From Bacteroidaceae bacterium (GTDB taxonomy: Bacteria; Bacteroidota; Bacteroidia; Bacteroidales; Bacteroidaceae): a stretch of DNA of 44,848 nt. The stretch is taken from the NCBI GenBank assembly GCA_017965425.1, contig JAGCPY010000011.1, positions 1 to 44,848 of the forward strand, written 5' to 3'. The first letter of the stretch is position 1, and each line of letters starts with the position of its first letter. This document shows positions 11,070 to 18,679 of the stretch, piece by piece. Made by a program: the position numbers and the translations under genes. The notes under the pieces were generated by a model. It made no database searches, was not told the DNA's origin, and saw only the letters and a program-made list of their open reading frames with translations.

Positions 11070-11564
11070 TTAGAAGATGACATCGTCCTGAGAGACACTA
11101 CCATTGGTGACTTCCTCCACCACTTCGTCGGCAGGTGGAGGAGTGGATGAAGACGGTGGTTCTTCCGTGGGTTGCTCCTGGACTGATGGAGAGGGTGATT
11201 CTGATCGTTTAACAGTTCCTTTTGCGCCACCCGTCTTGCGAGACGTGGAAGGCTTCAGGTCGGTGCAGAGACTTTGCTTGATGTAAGCGGTGATGACGGA
11301 GTCGCCTTTCAGCCGCACTTCGTACCACCCCTTCTTCTCTGCCACCACGTCGAGCACGGTGCCATTGCTCACCTGTCGTCTATTGCCCTTGGCGTCGAGG
11401 ACGAAGCCGTAGCTGGTGCCAGGTCCCGTGCGCAGGTTGGCGGTCTTGACGGCCACTCTCACTTGTTTCAGCACATCCGGGCTATCAGTTTCTTTGTGGC
11501 TGCATTTGCCGTAGAGCCAGGCACCTGCCACGAGAATGATGAGGAGATAAGACAGTTTCTTCAT
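11070..11564 (-). CDS. Small exported SH3-domain protein
   Basis: A 164-residue protein with a membrane-spanning or signal segment at residues 4-20, whose cysteine (GKCSH) is not a clean lipobox. A bacterial SH3b domain follows at about 35-105 (VKTANLRTGPGTSYGFVLDAKG ... GWYEVRLKGDSVITAYIKQ), then a Ser/Pro/Glu-rich low-complexity tail. SH3b domains usually bind peptidoglycan or peptides. Its ATG overlaps the stop of the upstream four-module gene by 4 bp, so the two are probably translationally coupled and may act together at the envelope. Confidence 0.7.
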   Translation of the reverse strand: MKKLSYLLIILVAGAWLYGKCSHKETDSPDVLKQVRVAVKTANLRTGPGTSYGFVLDAKGNRRQVSNGTVLDVVAEKKGWYEVRLKGDSVITAYIKQSLCTDLKPSTSRKTGGAKGTVKRSESPSPSVQEQPTEEPPSSSTPPPADEVVEEVTNGSVSQDDVIF

Positions 11565-13879
11565 TTCTTTGTTTTCTTTACTTTCATGTCATAGAGCACG
11601 TACTGCCCTGAACGGTATTCGCCGCATTCGAGCCAGAACATGAGTTGGTGGCAGCGGTTGATGGGTACGGTGTAAGTAGTTGGCTTCATCTCGTTGCACA
11701 CCATGAACTCACCCACCTTCACTTGGTCGGCAAAGACGTCGAGGCGTACGGAATCGGCCTTGGCGTTGCCGCCGAGGGCGTTCACCATCGGATCTACGTA
11801 TGGTGACTTACAAGCCACAGTGAACGTCAGTTCGTCGTACTCGCCGTAGGGGTTAAAGGCACAGGCCGAAGACTGCTGTCCTCCTGCGCTGAAAAGCGAA
11901 AAGACCCCGAAGTTCAAGCCGTTCTTCCGTAGCTTGGTGACAGATGCCGAGTCGCCCCGCTGTGCCCCGACGGCGGCTCCCATCATACCGGCCACGCCGC
12001 CGTCGCCAGCCGTGGTGCCTGAGTAGGCTCCGAAGTCGCTGCCCTCGGAGATGGCTCCGCCGACGCCCGTGAGGAACATGAAGGCGGCATTGAGCGGCGT
12101 GATGTTCTCAAGGGCAAAGGGGATGTTGGTCTCCAGCATCACACCTTTATATATCTTTGAGCCGTCGTGCATCTGGAAGAAGCGGCGCTTGGATTCTCCG
12201 TTCTGAAAGCAGTCGTTGAAATCGAAGTTGGTCAGCACGCTCAGCCAGCGACCCACGTAGTGGTAGTAGGGTGCCTTGCACAGGTCGATGAGGTCGATGC
12301 TGTCCGGGCATTCTGGTTTGGGATGCGAGAACAGCCCGCTGTTGTCCTGCACCTGTCCGCGATAGAGCGTCACGTCGCCAATGCCGAAGTAGCTGTTGTT
12401 CTGCTCGGCGGTGCCGGGCTTGGCGAAGGTGAGGGTGCGGCACTTGTTGAGCGGGATGACGAAACGCTGGTTGGGCCACGTGACGTGTATGATGGTGTCG
12501 AGCATCACCTTGCCGTCGCACAGGATGCGGATATTGTCGTCCGACTGTGTGCGCCGCTTGGTGAGTGCACCCACGGTGAAGGACATGTAGTCGAACTCTC
12601 CGGCCAGGTCAAACTTGTAGTAGGCCGACACGTGCTCGTCGAGCAGCGTGTTGCCGCTGGTGAGGATGAAGCCCTCGGTGAACCGCTCGCCGCCCATGGA
12701 GAAGGAGTAGAACTCGCTCTCGTCCGTGAACACCGTCTGCCCATAGCTGCCCATGCCCTGCACGCTGTAGGGAGGGATGTTCGACACCAGCTTGCACATG
12801 TCGGGCAGCTTAGCCAGGCGGCTTTTCGAGGCGTTCACCTTGCCCGGTTCGGGCAGCGAGGCCACGTCGTAGGCAGGCGGATAGGCAAAGATGTTGACCA
12901 CGCCGAAGGTCATGCCACCGATGAAGCGGCTGTCGTCCAGTACGCCGTGGAACGAGAGCTGCTCCACGCCCGTCACGTCGAGCACCACCATTTCGGCCAG
13001 GTCTTGTTGCGTGACCCGCTTCTCGTAGAGAATCTTGCCGTCGCCCTTCACCGTCAGCCATGCCGAGGCCGCACTGGCCTGGTTGTCACGCGGACCGACG
13101 ATGAACGACACCTTCTTGTACTTCTTCTGTAGCCAGAAATAGACCCAACTGCCCTCGTCCTCACCGGCAAGCGTCATGGTGCATGTGCACTGTACGCCTG
13201 TCTTGTACTTCACGCGGTTGATGCTGATGTCAGAGCCGTCGGGACGGACGCGGGCAATCACCTTGTCCTTCGACGTGATCCATCCTATTCGCCCCCAGTA
13301 GGGCTCCAGCTGTCCCAGCAGCTGCACGCGGTCGGAGCTGTTGATGTGGCGCAGGGGGTCGGGGGCAGGGCGGAAGGTCTCGCCGGCCTTCCACAGCCTC
13401 ACGCTGGCAAAGCCTACCTGCTCGTCGCCACGGGGCATTTCGATGCGCAGCTGGCGTACGCCCTTCACGTCGATGACGTGTTCCGTCGGGGCGTCGTGGC
13501 GCCACACCACGCGGTCGAACACACGCTTGCCGTCGGCCCTGATTGCTATGAGCGCATTACCCTTATCGCTGTTGGTGAACCAGTTGACGGGGCCAATCAC
13601 GAAACTCAGCTTCTCGTAGTTCCCGTTCAAGTCGAACTGTGCAAAGTTGGGCTTCTCGGCACCGTGCATATAGCTGCCGAGCGTAAAGCCCCCCTTGTAC
13701 TTGTGGGTGGCTATCTCCATGACGTCCTCGCCCTTTGTGGGGTAGGCCTTGTATCCGTTCTCCTCGCTTGGCTTATATACATCGCTCAGGTAGGTTTGTG
13801 CCTGGATGGTGAAATTCGTCATCAATAGCAAGCACAAGACAACAAGTTGATGAATATTTCTTTGCAATGCAGTCCACAT
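11561..13879 (-). CDS. Secreted protein with repeated NPCBM-like beta modules
   Basis: A 772-residue protein with a signal peptide ending near FTIQAQ. I see four modules of one plan, each with a GGF(T/I)L-type start, FDLxGxYxxLSFxxG, a DGK-centred strand, and a closing V/I-D-V or VPINxC strand: FDLNGNYEKLSFVIG, KYKKVSFIVGP, FDLAGEFDYMSFTVG and FNPYGEYDELTFTVA. This resembles NPCBM carbohydrate-binding modules; no catalytic domain is visible. The fourth module carries a Gly/Ala-rich insertion of about 40 residues. An in-frame ATG at 13909 lies inside the -7 box, so ATG 13879 is chosen. No type IX sorting tail is seen. Ligand unknown. Confidence 0.6.
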   Translation of the reverse strand: MWTALQRNIHQLVVLCLLLMTNFTIQAQTYLSDVYKPSEENGYKAYPTKGEDVMEIATHKYKGGFTLGSYMHGAEKPNFAQFDLNGNYEKLSFVIGPVNWFTNSDKGNALIAIRADGKRVFDRVVWRHDAPTEHVIDVKGVRQLRIEMPRGDEQVGFASVRLWKAGETFRPAPDPLRHINSSDRVQLLGQLEPYWGRIGWITSKDKVIARVRPDGSDISINRVKYKTGVQCTCTMTLAGEDEGSWVYFWLQKKYKKVSFIVGPRDNQASAASAWLTVKGDGKILYEKRVTQQDLAEMVVLDVTGVEQLSFHGVLDDSRFIGGMTFGVVNIFAYPPAYDVASLPEPGKVNASKSRLAKLPDMCKLVSNIPPYSVQGMGSYGQTVFTDESEFYSFSMGGERFTEGFILTSGNTLLDEHVSAYYKFDLAGEFDYMSFTVGALTKRRTQSDDNIRILCDGKVMLDTIIHVTWPNQRFVIPLNKCRTLTFAKPGTAEQNNSYFGIGDVTLYRGQVQDNSGLFSHPKPECPDSIDLIDLCKAPYYHYVGRWLSVLTNFDFNDCFQNGESKRRFFQMHDGSKIYKGVMLETNIPFALENITPLNAAFMFLTGVGGAISEGSDFGAYSGTTAGDGGVAGMMGAAVGAQRGDSASVTKLRKNGLNFGVFSLFSAGGQQSSACAFNPYGEYDELTFTVACKSPYVDPMVNALGGNAKADSVRLDVFADQVKVGEFMVCNEMKPTTYTVPINRCHQLMFWLECGEYRSGQYVLYDMKVKKTKK

Positions 13880-13906: not shown

Positions 13907-13914
13907 CAAACATA
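13907..13914 (-). promoter_or_regulatory. -7 box of the four-module gene
   Basis: The minus strand reads TATGTTTG followed by CCGCC, 27 bp before the chosen ATG. No clear -33 box. It diverges from the box at 13957. Confidence 0.55.
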
Positions 13915-13956: not shown

Positions 13957-13964
13957 TATCTTTG
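13957..13964 (+). promoter_or_regulatory. -7 box of the Sel1/MORN/DUF1963 operon
   Basis: TATCTTTG followed by GACC, 33 bp before ATG 13998. No TTTG at the -33 distance. It is the only box found before the five-gene run. Confidence 0.6.
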
Positions 13965-13997
13965 GACCAAAATAGATGTTACCATAACTAATTGCCG

Positions 13998-15173
13998 ATG
14001 ACTACAACACTCTTAAATACACACGACGAACATTTCTTGCGACGCTTTCGCACCAAAGAACGTGTGATGCGACTCTCTCATGAAGAGGTCGAGATGTTGC
14101 ATCGGACTTCTGAACGTGGCGATGCCTATGCTCAGTATGGCTATGGGCGCTGGCTTTATTTCAAGAATCCATTTGAAGGAGCTATTCAAGAAGCTGAAGT
14201 CTTGTTTGACCGCTCCAAGGACGTGCTGTCCGACAGCTTGGCAGCTTATTCCCAGATGCTACGCTATGGCGAGACCTCTGTGACACGTCCGTCAGATATG
14301 GATGTCGAAGGCAGCAAACAGCTACTTCGTCAAGCCATAGGACGTGGTAGCACGTATGCCGCCATGACCGATGCACGCAAACGCATTTTCGGTATTTACT
14401 GCGAAGCGGAACCTGCGAAAGTGGCCAACGAGGTAGAACAGCTCATCAATACAGAGATTGACTACGACACGTTGTGGCTCTGCCTGTTGGCCTTAGCCTA
14501 CGAAAAGATGGACAGACAGGACGATGCCATCCGATGCTATGAACAGGCCCTTGGCCGTGGTGAGCAGGATGCCTATTTCTTTCTGGCAGCAACCTATCTG
14601 CAGCGTGGTAATATGGCTTTGTATGAGGAATATATGGAGGAGGGCATACGGCAGGACTGTGCCTTGTGCATGTTCTACCAAGCGGATATGAGCGAAGAGA
14701 ATTTCAATGCGCTGGATGCAACCGAACAGGCCAAGATCCATCAGAACATCGATGAGCGTCTGCACCGAGGACTGGAGTTGGGTGACGGCACCTGTGCTTA
14801 TTATTTGTGGTATCACCATTATTATGGGGAGCTGGGATTTCCCGAGGACTTGGAAAAAGCTTTCGACTATCTGGAGGATGGGGTTCGGCTGGCCGACACC
14901 ACCTGCATCAAGCAGATGGTGACAGAGGCGCGTGCCGGTTGTCTGCCTCCAAGCAGGACACTATCACCCACGGAAATAGGAGAACTCGCACTCAAGGCCG
15001 CTCGCTACTGCCCAGACGACGAAGAAGCGTTGAGTGAATTGCGGCGTGTAGACGACCCCGCCTTTCTGCTGCGCCACAAGGAGGAAATGGAGCGCTATTG
15101 GATGCCTTTGTTCGAGCAACTGCCAGAGGAAGAACTGGATGACGATGACGGGCGGTATGACGCTTGGGCGTAG
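13998..15173 (+). CDS. Sel1-like/TPR repeat protein
   Basis: A 391-residue protein without signal peptide or membrane segment, so probably cytoplasmic. It is built of helical pairs of the Sel1/TPR type: RGDAYAQYGYGRWLYF at the N-terminus, AIGRGSTYAAMTDARKRIFG, YEKMDRQDDAIRCYEQALGRG (a near-canonical TPR), and LGDGTCAYYLWYHHYYGE with EDLEKAFDYLEDGVRL later. Such solenoids bind proteins. The C-terminus is very acidic (EELDDDDG). A TTG at 13992 is possible, but ATG 13998 is preferred. It is the first gene of an operon with no recognised function. Confidence 0.7.
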   Translation: MTTTLLNTHDEHFLRRFRTKERVMRLSHEEVEMLHRTSERGDAYAQYGYGRWLYFKNPFEGAIQEAEVLFDRSKDVLSDSLAAYSQMLRYGETSVTRPSDMDVEGSKQLLRQAIGRGSTYAAMTDARKRIFGIYCEAEPAKVANEVEQLINTEIDYDTLWLCLLALAYEKMDRQDDAIRCYEQALGRGEQDAYFFLAATYLQRGNMALYEEYMEEGIRQDCALCMFYQADMSEENFNALDATEQAKIHQNIDERLHRGLELGDGTCAYYLWYHHYYGELGFPEDLEKAFDYLEDGVRLADTTCIKQMVTEARAGCLPPSRTLSPTEIGELALKAARYCPDDEEALSELRRVDDPAFLLRHKEEMERYWMPLFEQLPEEELDDDDGRYDAWA

Positions 15174-15203
15174 GAAAGTGAAAAGTGAAAATGAAATACT
15201 GCA

Positions 15204-15800
15204 ATGAATAACAAGAAGAGAATAGAATGTCTGGTGGCCACTGTGGACAAGATGCGTAAGAATTCGCAAGAGATGCGGATGTGGCGGAACGTGCCGCTGG
15301 GCGCAGAATGTATGGAACTGCTGCAAGCCATTGAAGACCCAGAAGAGGAGGGCATCGGGAAGGTGATGGCCTGTGAGGCCATTGTGGAACAACTGCCTGA
15401 ATATGATATTCCCCGACAGGTGCTCGACATCCGCCATTATGAGCAACAGCAGTTGGCTTTGGCCAGTGAAGATGACTTGAAGCAGCACCCTGACTTAAAG
15501 GATGAACTGGAGCAGGCCATCCGCAAGTTGGAGGACTATATCGACACGGAGCACATCAGCGATGGGGAGTTCCGGGAGCGATACAACCGCCACCTGAAGT
15601 CGGCACCCATCGAGCGTACGCCGTTGTGGGAAGAGAACTATTACGAAGTGGAGAAGGAATGCGACCGCAGACTGGGCAACACGCCACGTGGCATGGGCTT
15701 CTGCTTTGCCTACTGGAGCACATTGCGCCAAGTACTTGCCGAACGCGGCATCCTTTGGCAGTCGCCACATGAACTCAACCCACGTGTGATGTTTGATTAG
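15204..15800 (+). CDS. Uncharacterised 198-residue cytoplasmic protein
   Basis: I do not recognise this family with confidence. It has no signal peptide or membrane segment, is strongly charged, and is mostly predicted helix. The most distinctive part is the C-terminal block with RGMGFCFAYW, then WQSPHELNPRVMFD at the extreme end, which looks like a conserved tail. It starts 30 bp after the Sel1-like gene and ends 36 bp before the large MORN-like gene. The short AGTGAAAA repeats just upstream occupy the position of a ribosome-binding region. Confidence 0.6.
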   Translation: MNNKKRIECLVATVDKMRKNSQEMRMWRNVPLGAECMELLQAIEDPEEEGIGKVMACEAIVEQLPEYDIPRQVLDIRHYEQQQLALASEDDLKQHPDLKDELEQAIRKLEDYIDTEHISDGEFRERYNRHLKSAPIERTPLWEENYYEVEKECDRRLGNTPRGMGFCFAYWSTLRQVLAERGILWQSPHELNPRVMFD

Positions 15801-15836
15801 TCTAATCGTAATTTGTAAAATCTCTAAATTATATTT

Positions 15837-17492
15837 ATGTCAGTAGCTTGTTTCATCAATGTGTATAACAGCCACATGGACCGTGGCTCCAAGGTGACTA
15901 CCATCCCTCGTGAGCACTACGAAGTGGACGAGAGTGAAATTGTAGTGGGCAAACCGCTGCCCAAGTTGTGTGCGACAAACACTGTGACGGCCTACGATGG
16001 CGCACAAATCACGCTTGCGCTGTACGGAAAGACCTACACCATCAAGATTGATGAGGAGGTGGAGGTGTCTAGCAGCGAGCACCATGTTGGCGGGGGAGTC
16101 TATAGCCGCAACTGCTATTGCGTCAGTCTCCTTGCGACAGAAATCATCTATAAAGGCGGCTGGCAGTGGGGCGACACCATCCGGCAGGAACTGGCAGGAC
16201 CCATCGGCGACGGAGAGGTGTTCTATCCCAATGGCGACCACTTCAAGGGCACGTTCCACCTGAGCTATGCCAGTATCAACGGACCTGCCTACGCCGCAGA
16301 GGGACGTTATACCTTTGCCGACGGCAGCTACATCGAGCACGCATGGATCAACACCTCGAAGGACAAGAAACCGGAGTGGTGGGGCCTGCACGGCGTGTTC
16401 CGCATCAAGCGTCCGCCGTGCTCCTCAGACTGTCCGTCGGCGGGCTTGCCCGACAGTATCGCTATGTTCCTACACGGTGGCCGCCGCTATGGCTTCGAAC
16501 TGTTTTTGGAGAAGACGTCCTCGGGCAAGGTGGAGCCTTGGGTGAGAGAGTGGTACGCCGGCGACAAAATCGTCCGCTACAAGGGGCCTGACGACCTGTT
16601 CCGGTATGAGGTGCTGGACTGGGAACTGGACGAGAGTAGCCGGGTTGACTGCATCACGCTTCGCCTGACGCTCCGCGCCATCGATGGTAAGATATACAAG
16701 GTGGAGCAGCGCGGCGGCGACTATGAGTCCAACAAATATGGCAACTACATCTACGAGCTATCGACCCGCGCCACGCTCTGGCTGCCCAATGGCGACTCCA
16801 TCGACCACTATGGCGACGACGTGAAAGATTTCAAGCCCTACGACGGCTACGTGGAAGTACACTGTGCCAAGAAAGCCAAGTGCCGCAGTGAACATTGGCA
16901 GAAAGGCGAACGGGTGGAGGCCAAGAAATGGCAGCGCGACTGGAGTGCCTCCAAGCGGTTGACACTGCCCAACCCCACGGGAATAGGCCCAGAGATGACG
17001 GCCAACGTGTGGGCAGACGGGCACATCAGTTACAACCACGACGAGTGGGTCTATGAAGGCGAGGTGAAGAACGACCGCCCCGACGGACAGGGCGTGCTCG
17101 TGGGCGATGACTATCATGGCAAACGCCGCTATGAGGGCATATTCATTGATGGCCAATACGTCAACGACGAAGAGACGTTTACGGGTAAGGTCATGCTGCA
17201 CGCCAAGAGCGGTCACAAGAGTTGGACGGTTTACAGCGATGGCGAGTGGAAGTATAAGGAGTACGACATGGAGGCCAAGCTGGGTACGCTGGGCGCCGAT
17301 GGCTTCTGGAACTATGAGATTACGAAAATCACCCAGGAAGCCATCACCATCTCCTTCTACGACAAGACCTACACGCTCACACCTGACCATCCCCTGCACT
17401 TGTCGGAGTCGATTGAAGGCGATGAGTATAGCGACGGCTGTGTCTATGACGGCGATGACTACTCGCTGGAACTGACGTGGATAGTAGAATAA
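15837..17492 (+). CDS. MORN-repeat-like protein with a triplicated beta motif
   Basis: A 551-residue, tyrosine- and glycine-rich protein without signal peptide. MORN-like units are visible: IGDGEVFYPNGDHFKGTF, AAEGRYTFADGSYIEHAW, ATLWLPNGDSIDHYGDDV and WVYEGEVKNDRPDGQGVLVG followed by KRRYEGIFIDGQY. In addition a short beta motif occurs three times: GAQITLALYGKTYTIKID near residue 55, LRLTLRAIDGKIYKVE near 270, and QEAITISFYDKTYTLTPD near 505, the first and last followed by a loop and (S/D)G(C/V)Y-type strand. MORN proteins typically scaffold proteins or lipids; the function here is unknown. Confidence 0.6.
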   Translation: MSVACFINVYNSHMDRGSKVTTIPREHYEVDESEIVVGKPLPKLCATNTVTAYDGAQITLALYGKTYTIKIDEEVEVSSSEHHVGGGVYSRNCYCVSLLATEIIYKGGWQWGDTIRQELAGPIGDGEVFYPNGDHFKGTFHLSYASINGPAYAAEGRYTFADGSYIEHAWINTSKDKKPEWWGLHGVFRIKRPPCSSDCPSAGLPDSIAMFLHGGRRYGFELFLEKTSSGKVEPWVREWYAGDKIVRYKGPDDLFRYEVLDWELDESSRVDCITLRLTLRAIDGKIYKVEQRGGDYESNKYGNYIYELSTRATLWLPNGDSIDHYGDDVKDFKPYDGYVEVHCAKKAKCRSEHWQKGERVEAKKWQRDWSASKRLTLPNPTGIGPEMTANVWADGHISYNHDEWVYEGEVKNDRPDGQGVLVGDDYHGKRRYEGIFIDGQYVNDEETFTGKVMLHAKSGHKSWTVYSDGEWKYKEYDMEAKLGTLGADGFWNYEITKITQEAITISFYDKTYTLTPDHPLHLSESIEGDEYSDGCVYDGDDYSLELTWIVE

Positions 17493-17493
17493 G

Positions 17494-17551
17494 ATTCTGA
17501 ATACTCTGATTATTCTGATTAATCTGAATATTCTGAAAATTCTGAGAAACA
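17494..17551 (+). repeat. TCTGA-type short tandem repeat
   Basis: The 66-bp gap between the two MORN-like genes is almost wholly an irregular array of TCTGA with 3-4 nt spacers (ATTCTGAATACTCTGATTAT and so on, about seven units). Such an array inside an operon could change length by slippage and alter spacing, but it is non-coding here. Confidence 0.6.
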
Positions 17552-17558
17552 ACCAACA

Positions 17559-18050
17559 ATGGAACCAAGAAAGATAATCCGATTGGAATACGACGGCGAG
17601 CGAGATGCTGACGGACTGCCGCATGGTGAGGGCTATTTGGAATACTATGTGGATGAGGAGCACATACCTTTCCCGCAGTATCCCGACCTGAAAGAGTATT
17701 ATAGAGAAGTGGGCAGAATGGTCTATAAAGGCCATTTCGAGCACGGTGTGCGACAGGGCAAGGGCTATCTGGCCGAGCTGATGCTCAGGCCGGCCAGTCG
17801 CTACGAGTGGTACTCCGAGGGCGAGTATGACTGCGGCCGGCTCATTCGTCCCGAACACCCGGAAGGCTCTTACCGCGACGGTGTGTGCACGAAATTCTGG
17901 TACTTCCGCTTCGAGGGAACGTGGCAGGACGACATGCCTTTCGAACCACGTTATCCCGAACAGAAACTCAACGAGGAAGACCGGCAGCACATCCGACGCA
18001 CATGTAAGGCTGAGCTTGAAAAGACATTCAATCTTTACCACATTCCATGA
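17559..18050 (+). CDS. Small MORN-like protein
   Basis: A 163-residue cytoplasmic protein with MORN-like units (DADGLPHGEGYLEYYVDEEH; GRMVYKGHFEHGVRQGKGYL; SEGEYDCGRL; FRFEGTWQDDMPFEP). It is related in style to the 551-residue upstream protein. Its TGA overlaps the ATG of the DUF1963 gene by 4 bp, so translation of the two is probably coupled and the products may be needed in fixed ratio. Confidence 0.65.
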   Translation: MEPRKIIRLEYDGERDADGLPHGEGYLEYYVDEEHIPFPQYPDLKEYYREVGRMVYKGHFEHGVRQGKGYLAELMLRPASRYEWYSEGEYDCGRLIRPEHPEGSYRDGVCTKFWYFRFEGTWQDDMPFEPRYPEQKLNEEDRQHIRRTCKAELEKTFNLYHIP

Positions 18051-18679
18051 TTCAGCTCCAGACAGAACCGGCGGACAGTCCCCTCACAGGAAAGAGCAAG
18101 TGGTGGGGAGAGCCTGATATGCCACAAGAACTGAACTGGCCGGAAATCACAGTGACAGACGAGGACGGCGAGGAATATCACGACCCGCTGACTTTTGTCT
18201 GTCAGATACGTTGTGAGGATATTGCCGCCCTGGACTCAGAGGAACTCTTGCCGCATGAGGGAATGCTCTACTTCTTTGCCGCCTTGGATTATTTTCTGGG
18301 CGACTTCGACACACCCGCGTATCCGGGAATGGGGCGGTGGCAACCCGAATACTTCTGCGTGCTCTATGCACCATCGTGTACCGAACTGCATACCCACCAC
18401 CTGAACTATCCCGATAATTCACCTGCCACGCTGCCAGCCGAAGCAATTACGTTCTCAACCTGTTCCGAGGCTGCTGATGGTCTGCGCTTGCTGGGCCAGC
18501 CTTATATAGAAGAGGTAAGCGAGGCAGTGCCCGGTGCGCTCTCCCTACTGCAAATCGACGGAGAAGACCGCTGGAACCTCATCTTCCACGACTGCGGCAC
18601 GTTGAACTACCTTATTCAACCAAAGCATCTAAAGAAACGTCAGTGGGATAAGGTATCCTGCTACCTTTTTTCATTCTGA
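18047..18679 (+). CDS. DUF1963 (YwqG-like) protein
   Basis: A 210-residue cytoplasmic protein. SKWWGEPDMP near the N-terminus, LTFVCQIRCEDIA with GMLYFFAALDYFLGDFD in the middle and LLQIDGEDRWNLIFHDCGTLNYLI near the end are the landmarks of the DUF1963/YwqG family. In Bacillus the founding member sits beside a polymorphic toxin gene, and family members are often suspected to be immunity or toxin-associated proteins. No toxin is visible in this window. Last gene of the five-gene operon; uvrA converges on it with a 39-bp gap. Confidence 0.75.
   Translation: MIQLQTEPADSPLTGKSKWWGEPDMPQELNWPEITVTDEDGEEYHDPLTFVCQIRCEDIAALDSEELLPHEGMLYFFAALDYFLGDFDTPAYPGMGRWQPEYFCVLYAPSCTELHTHHLNYPDNSPATLPAEAITFSTCSEAADGLRLLGQPYIEEVSEAVPGALSLLQIDGEDRWNLIFHDCGTLNYLIQPKHLKKRQWDKVSCYLFSF

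What the first reader, a model, noticed from the sequence alone, without database searches (positions are those of the whole stretch)
13957..18679. Five-gene operon of uncharacterised repeat proteins ending in DUF1963
One promoter box precedes Sel1/TPR-like, unknown, large MORN-like, small MORN-like and DUF1963 genes, with gaps of 30, 36 and 66 bp and one 4-bp overlap. None has a signal peptide, so the set is cytoplasmic. DUF1963/YwqG genes are known beside toxin genes, and Sel1 and MORN proteins occur in effector and immunity loci, so a defence, immunity or protein-quality role is a reasonable hypothesis. No toxin, Rhs, VgrG or nuclease is present, so function remains open.
Basis: partly seen in the sequence, partly recalled or inferred. 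Interest (0 to 1): 0.7.

Follow-up and report, generated by a model that had tools for sequence, protein, structure and literature searches.

The report
Reshuffled scaffold gene set, kinase-linked
Five adjacent genes of a Bacteroidales bacterium belong to a gene set that recurs in related bacteria in reshuffled order and sometimes fused, in about a quarter of the examined places together with a protein-kinase operon, and that likely encodes the scaffold of an apparently undescribed signalling machine.

Summary
The five genes are as described, and their families are a real recurring set. In 101 genomes every A, C, D and E hit lies in one of the eight genomes that carry B, within about 2.3 kb of it. 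Order changes (A-B-C, E-A-B-C, C-D-A-B, C-D-E-A-B, A-D-B-C-E) and nine ORFs fuse two families. The set is larger than reported: a divergent pair, N (NPCBM) and S (SH3), both predicted exported, goes with it. Of 80 loci found through B, 20 also hold a multi-AAA+ gene, 15 of them in a complete zinc-ribbon / kinase / AAA+ / FHA / PP2C operon. The window's genome has no close match to that kinase or AAA+ protein.

Best reading: a cytoplasmic scaffold-and-chaperone set (TPR, helical, MORN-like, DUF1963/TYPP) that likely serves an envelope-linked phospho-signalling AAA+ machine; the window holds a standalone form. Toxin immunity is not supported. A link to defence rests on DUF4062 (TIR-like NADase) genes in 5 of 80 loci and on domain-level kinase and AAA+ likeness to defence proteins. 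None of my paper searches listed a description of the set; its function is untested.

The parts
13998..15173 (+). Gene A, 391 aa, TPR-like; a longer form in some relatives carries an extra ~125-aa C-terminal domain that the window's A lacks, while both end in DDGRYDAWA (L033 compared)
   Evidence: TPR_8 25.7 bits; relatives 52-57% identical, all near B; domain survey; tail in L033
15204..15800 (+). Gene B, 198 aa, unnamed all-helical family with a conserved C-terminal PRGMGFCF...NPxVxFD
   Evidence: no match above a cut-off in Pfam (best DUF7438 13.6 bits against 25), none in PADLOC or NCBIfam; 972 homologues by profile; conserved columns; model pLDDT 93.8
15837..17492 (+). Gene C, 551 aa, all-beta in the model, MORN-like middle
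   Evidence: MORN 17.3 bits, below cut-off; model pLDDT 77.9; Foldseek junctophilin-2 E 8.3e-4, probability 1.00, TM-score only 0.13/0.23
17559..18050 (+). Gene D, 163 aa, MORN-like protein
   Evidence: MORN 19.5 bits here, below cut-off; 29.9 and 64.3 bits in relatives L033 and L040
18047..18679 (+). Gene E, 210 aa, DUF1963/TYPP
   Evidence: DUF1963 6.5e-20; WGxP and both conserved Q positions
11561..13879 (-). Gene N, 772 aa from the ATG at 13879, predicted exported protein with NPCBM domains, divergent from A
   Evidence: NPCBM 3.6e-24, 3 stretches; in 4 of 101 genomes, all beside A-B-C; N-terminus
11070..11564 (-). Gene S, 164 aa, predicted exported or membrane-anchored SH3_3 protein, 4-bp overlap with N
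   Evidence: SH3_3 27.0 bits, at cut-off; beside the set in 4 of 101 genomes, a fifth hit (G057, 4e-4) is a short stretch with stops; directly after B in L044 and L049
13957..13964 (+). TAnnTTTG box before gene A
   Evidence: that this is the Bacteroidetes promoter motif is recalled
13907..13914 (-). TAnnTTTG box before gene N

Best explanation
The five genes are one recurring gene set of Bacteroidales, shared with two divergent genes for predicted exported proteins, and likely encode a cytoplasmic scaffold-and-chaperone complex that would serve an envelope-linked kinase/AAA+ signalling machine, to whose kinase and AAA+ proteins the window's own genome has no close match. Shown: the families travel together while order and content change; members fuse to each other; in 20 of 80 loci the set lies with a multi-AAA+ gene, mostly in the order zinc ribbon - Ser/Thr kinase with membrane segments - AAA+ - zinc ribbon/FHA - PP2C. 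Inferred: A and B (helical, TPR-like) and C and D (MORN-like) form a scaffold; E (TYPP, proposed by others to be chaperone-like) helps its assembly; N and S, and the kinase's PG_binding_1 tail, bind cell-wall or glycan material and report envelope state; kinase and PP2C set a phospho-mark read by FHA; the AAA+ protein remodels the complex. In the window's lineage the scaffold and exported genes remain without that operon, so there they either act alone or use another partner.
For: Co-inheritance: B in 8 of 101 genomes, A 5, C 5, D 2, E 5, N 4, all nested in the eight; five of five falling in the eight by chance is 7e-7 if genomes were independent, which related genomes are not. Linkage: nearest copy within 3.5 kb of B on the same strand versus the opposite strand: A 43/0, C 19/0, D 11/1, E 32/1 of 80 loci (loci chosen by B, ends often cut). 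Fusions: A-B 6, C-A 1, D-B 1, D-A 1 ORFs. Operon: f3 AAA+ in 20, f6 zinc ribbon 21, f5 kinase 18, f9 FHA 18, f7 PP2C 17 of 80 loci, all five in 15; B directly before f6 in 13, median gap -1 bp, and E directly after f7 in 5, median -4 bp. Domains: kinase and PG_binding_1; AAA, FHA, PP2C, zinc ribbon. The extra domain of long A proteins is also on 10 other ORFs of these loci, among them L063's, which matches Pfam TerB. One chromosomal site (between GAPDH and miaA-like genes, the latter named by eye) holds C-D-A-B-S plus N in L044 and only E-B in L045 and L051.
Against: 60 of 80 loci have no f3 within the DNA held, though ends are often cut. 5 of the 8 B genomes (G000, G018, G041, G055, G058) lack a close f5 kinase, and 4 of the 7 genomes with a strong f5 hit (G002, G007, G015, G072) lack B, so each part exists without the other. 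The window genome's best f3 match, 3.5e-5, is an AAA protein of a kind that nearly all 101 genomes give. Scaffold and chaperone roles are inferred from fold classes only; B has no confident structural match and C only weak ones. No expression or interaction data.
Confidence: 0.4

Rival explanations
1. Heterogeneous polyimmunity locus: A-E are separate immunity proteins against toxins of rivals, gathered in one variable cluster.
For: Variable content, co-transcription and fused proteins are also described for polyimmunity loci (PMC3482391, passages).
Against: The same five families recur instead of a changing mix; no toxin or immunity family among the 25 commonest of 103 families beside them (the other 78 were not shown); association with one kinase/AAA+ operon; low dN/dS.
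Confidence: 0.15
2. Part of an antiphage or NLR-like conflict system in which the phospho-switch controls a DUF4062 NADase; A-E sense or restrain.
For: DUF4062 gene in 5 of 80 loci (Pfam for L076 and L111), directly after PP2C in 4; DUF4062 reported as antiphage TIR-like NADase (PMC13174449, a preprint, abstract and passages); the L040 kinase matches PADLOC mad6 (2.9e-28) and PD-T4-6 and its AAA+ protein IetA (3e-21), over the kinase and AAA domains only; TerB in the same operons.
Against: The window genome has no DUF4062 and no close f3 or f5; only G041 among the 8 B genomes has a DUF4062 over the cut-off, on another contig; the neighbour genes are mostly metabolic or housekeeping, with three PADLOC models matched by one gene each.
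Confidence: 0.2
3. Standalone envelope-maintenance complex: N and S act at the cell surface and A-E aid their making or placement; the kinase operon elsewhere is a later recruit.
For: Among 101 genomes N, and S but for one weak fragment, occur only with A-B-C, and 5 of 8 B genomes lack the kinase.
Against: N is in only 14 and S in 5 of the 80 B loci.
Confidence: 0.2

Closest known systems
TYPP superfamily (DUF1963/YwqG, PDCD2, TSR4)
   Same: E matches DUF1963 and keeps the motif and Q residues
   Different: the passages read (PMC4275035) name other fusions and neighbours, not a set like A-D
Threonine-phosphorylation pathway of type VI secretion (kinase, PP2C, FHA; recalled)
   Same: kinase + PP2C + FHA logic in the wider operon
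   Different: no secretion protein was recognised among the recurring neighbour families (Pfam), and a multi-AAA+ protein is added; the window lacks all of it
Ter stress systems (TerB; recalled)
   Same: TerB proteins in several of the operons, one (L063) sharing a domain with long A
   Different: other Ter families were not sought; the one TerB of the window genome is on another contig
Swarozyc DUF4062 NADase (PMC13174449)
   Same: DUF4062 gene in 5 of 80 related loci
   Different: absent from the window genome; in the loci it lies in a kinase/AAA+ operon
Polyimmunity loci (PMC3482391)
   Same: variable same-strand cluster with fusions
   Different: fixed families; no toxin or immunity domain in the list seen

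Membership tests
TYPP/DUF1963 (gene E) | Pfam DUF1963 above cut-off | tested here: met
   72.9 bits against 23
TYPP/DUF1963 (gene E) | GGxP-like motif and conserved Q | tested here: met
   WGEPD (one G), Q53 invariant and Q169 in at least 90% of 15; definition from PMC4275035
MORN (gene D) | Pfam MORN above cut-off | tested here: inconclusive
   19.5 bits in the window, below 22.5; 29.9 and 64.3 in relatives
MORN (gene C) | Pfam MORN above cut-off | tested here: inconclusive
TPR (gene A) | a TPR model at cut-off | tested here: met
   TPR_8 25.7 against 25.7, one repeat; three relatives tested: one above (31.9), two below
TPR or 14-3-3 (gene B) | confident structural match | tested here: inconclusive
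Heterogeneous polyimmunity locus | several known immunity families or an adjacent toxin | tested here: inconclusive
   none among the 25 of 103 Pfam families shown for 81 neighbours
Known defence system (PADLOC) | model match for A-E | tested here: not met
   0 families for each of five proteins
Kinase/AAA+/FHA/PP2C operon | kinase and multi-AAA+ protein of the operon's kind in the same genome | tested here: not met
   G000, 95% complete: best f3 match 3.5e-5, best f5 match 3.0e-9 in another kinase cluster

The most novel reading that the evidence does not exclude
A-E with N and S are the sensor-scaffold of an undescribed Bacteroidales immune machine: wall-binding exported proteins and a peptidoglycan-binding kinase detect envelope attack by phage or rivals, the phospho-switch drives a multi-AAA+ remodeller, and in some lineages this fires a DUF4062 NADase; the window's lineage keeps the sensor half alone.
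Probability: 0.12. Interest if true: 0.8.

Novelty: new variant of a known kind. Interest (0 to 1): 0.52.

Why it matters
Five little-studied families, one without any name (B, 972 homologues by profile), are placed in one set with a kinase, phosphatase, phospho-reader and AAA+ protein. That turns scattered 'hypothetical protein' and DUF1963 annotations of rumen and gut Bacteroidales into a testable complex, and gives a bacterial setting in which the chaperone idea for the PDCD2/TSR4 superfamily can be examined.

Tried and rejected
Unrelated housekeeping genes in a chance row: rejected by co-inheritance and fusions. Plasmid-borne cassette: B has no match in 72,556 plasmid records. Solved-structure relatives by sequence: the B profile's best hits are three 'DHT03' chains at 3.9e-5, 2.5e-4 and 0.024 (designed helical proteins, recalled), the other five from 0.099 upward, which I take as helix likeness; E finds YwqG 1pv5 at 0.0067. 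Kinase cluster of the window's genome at G000:C26 (zinc ribbon, kinase, FHA, PP2C, kinase) as partner in trans: not adopted, since G018, G041 and G058 carry A-B-C and give no f5 match at 1e-3 (they are 80-87% complete). DUF4062 as regular partner in the genus: not supported. A C-terminal 'EVIF' tail shared by S and one f5 kinase (L064): seen by eye in 1 of the 19 kinases printed, not pursued. Folds of pairs: not made (two jobs, used for B and C alone). Paper searches bearing on the set; going by titles and abstract starts listed, and by passages of the four papers opened, none describes it; the library lacks most subscription journals.
Full report
Observation. A TAnnTTTG box stands at 13957 before A; a second, on the other strand at 13907, faces gene N. 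Pfam gives A one TPR repeat at cut-off, C and D MORN below cut-off, E DUF1963 well above, B nothing above a cut-off; PADLOC gives nothing for any, NCBIfam only weak matches to A, far below the cut-offs.

Distribution in the genus and order. Sets of 101 genomes (the window's own plus 100 relatives) were searched with each protein. B is in 8, A in 5, C in 5, D in 2, E in 5, N in 4, S in 5, one of them a weak stretch with stops. Every A, C, D, E and N genome is a B genome, and the hits sit within about 2.3 kb of B (N up to about 4 kb): A-B-C in G055 and G018, E-A-B-C in G058, C-D-A-B in G041, E-B in G043, B-B-x-x-E in G050; G081 has E-B after AAA+ and PP2C genes on one contig and a second B on another. 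Relatedness of genomes means that the 7e-7 chance figure is only a guide.

Wider loci. A scan of GTDB genomes with the B alignment gave 113 relatives; the tool kept 80 (L039-L118). Profiles of A-E, N and S and of recurring neighbours were run on all six frames. Of the 80 loci, A is in 43, E 40, C 19, D 13, N 14, S 5. Within 3.5 kb of B the nearest copy is on B's strand in 43, 32, 19, 11 and 8 loci (A, E, C, D, N) and on the other in 0, 1, 0, 1 and 4. A-B fusions occur in L098, L103, L105, L110, L115 and L117, C-A in L065, D-B in L077, D-A in L097. L045 and L051 (E-B) and L044 (C-D-A-B-S with N) lie at the same chromosomal site, between a GAPDH gene (Pfam) and a miaA-like gene (named by eye), so content changes in place.

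The kinase/AAA+ operon. Five further families recur: f6 zinc ribbon (21 of 80 loci), f5 Ser/Thr kinase (18), f3 multi-AAA+ (20), f9 zinc ribbon/FHA (18), f7 PP2C (17); all five are in 15 loci (Pfam). The two f3 proteins tested have three AAA stretches each, and AAA_lid_6; I call them CbxX-type from memory. Their order is nearly fixed (f6-f5, f5-f3 and f3-f9 adjacent 17 times each, f9-f7 15 times; median gaps 3, 2, -4, -4 bp; L111 departs from it), B stands directly before f6 in 13 loci, in two of which (L059, L061) only f6 of the operon was seen, and E directly after f7 in 5. L040, whose B is 71% identical to the window's, reads A-D-B-C-E-f6-f5-f3-f9. The L040 kinase has a kinase domain, hydrophobic segments and a PG_binding_1 domain; by eye similar tails are in 10 more of the 19 f5 sequences printed. 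TerB matched in two operon proteins tested, L063 and L065, and in 3 of 81 neighbours. An unnamed ~125-residue domain is shared by 14 of the 44 single-family A ORFs, the C-A and D-A fusions and 10 other ORFs, one of which is the TerB protein of L063. DUF4062 genes follow f7 in L062, L067, L075 and L076 and one lies in L111.

Against a simple story. The window's genome (95% complete) has only distant AAA and kinase matches to f3 and f5; its own kinase/FHA/PP2C cluster on contig C26 is of another build. Seven genomes have a strong f5 hit (E of 1e-30 or less) and only three of them (G043, G050, G081) carry B (overlap p 0.01 under independence). So the scaffold set and the catalytic operon are modules that combine often, not always. 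DUF4062 is absent from the window genome and over the cut-off in only one of the eight B genomes. On the other side, the L040 kinase and AAA+ protein match PADLOC models of defence kinases (mad6, PD-T4-6) and AAA proteins (IetA) over those domains, which says they are of the same domain families, not that they belong to those systems.

Neighbours. 163 unassigned genes were counted in the same-strand runs around B; 81 genes directly touching A-E and holding no X were scanned. The 25 commonest of 103 Pfam families were mainly housekeeping, metabolic, regulatory or carbohydrate-related (EF-G, GAPDH, MTHFR, fucosidase, AraC-type HTH), with Sel1 in 7, TerB in 3 and ribosomal L12 in 2; no toxin or immunity family was among the 25. 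PADLOC: PD-T4-2_B, mad2 and dCTPase, one gene each.

Selection. dN/dS against relatives is 0.16 (A), 0.09-0.18 (B), 0.17-0.28 (C), 0.23-0.32 (D), 0.10-0.17 (E), 0.18-0.40 (N), 0.22-0.44 (S) where dS could be computed; many dS values exceed 1.

Conclusion. The mechanism offered (envelope-linked phospho-signalling with a scaffold/chaperone set) is inference from neighbours and fold classes; the window itself carries the scaffold and exported half only.

Noticed in passing
17494-17545: Between C and D a 9-bp tandem repeat (ATTCTGAAT, 5.8 copies, 83% match) fills most of the gap.
   Followed up: partly
L159 (G000:C26:52000-71000): Another zinc ribbon / kinase / FHA / PP2C / kinase cluster in the window's genome, followed by several proteins whose N-termini look like export signals by eye.
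   Followed up: no
L160, L161, L162: The f6-f5-f3-f9-f7 operon also stands without any of A-E in the stretch taken (L161, L162; f6-f5-f3 only in L160), among what look like housekeeping genes.
   Followed up: partly
L062, L067, L075, L076, L111: DUF4062 in kinase/AAA+ operons; the residues before the RPFFIGL stretch differ between L076 and L111 (Glu in L111, Cys in L076, by eye), which may bear on activity; not tested.
   Followed up: no
11070-11564 and L039, L044, L046, L048, L049: All six S proteins printed end in a short acidic-aromatic tail, D[DE]V[IF][FY].
   Followed up: no
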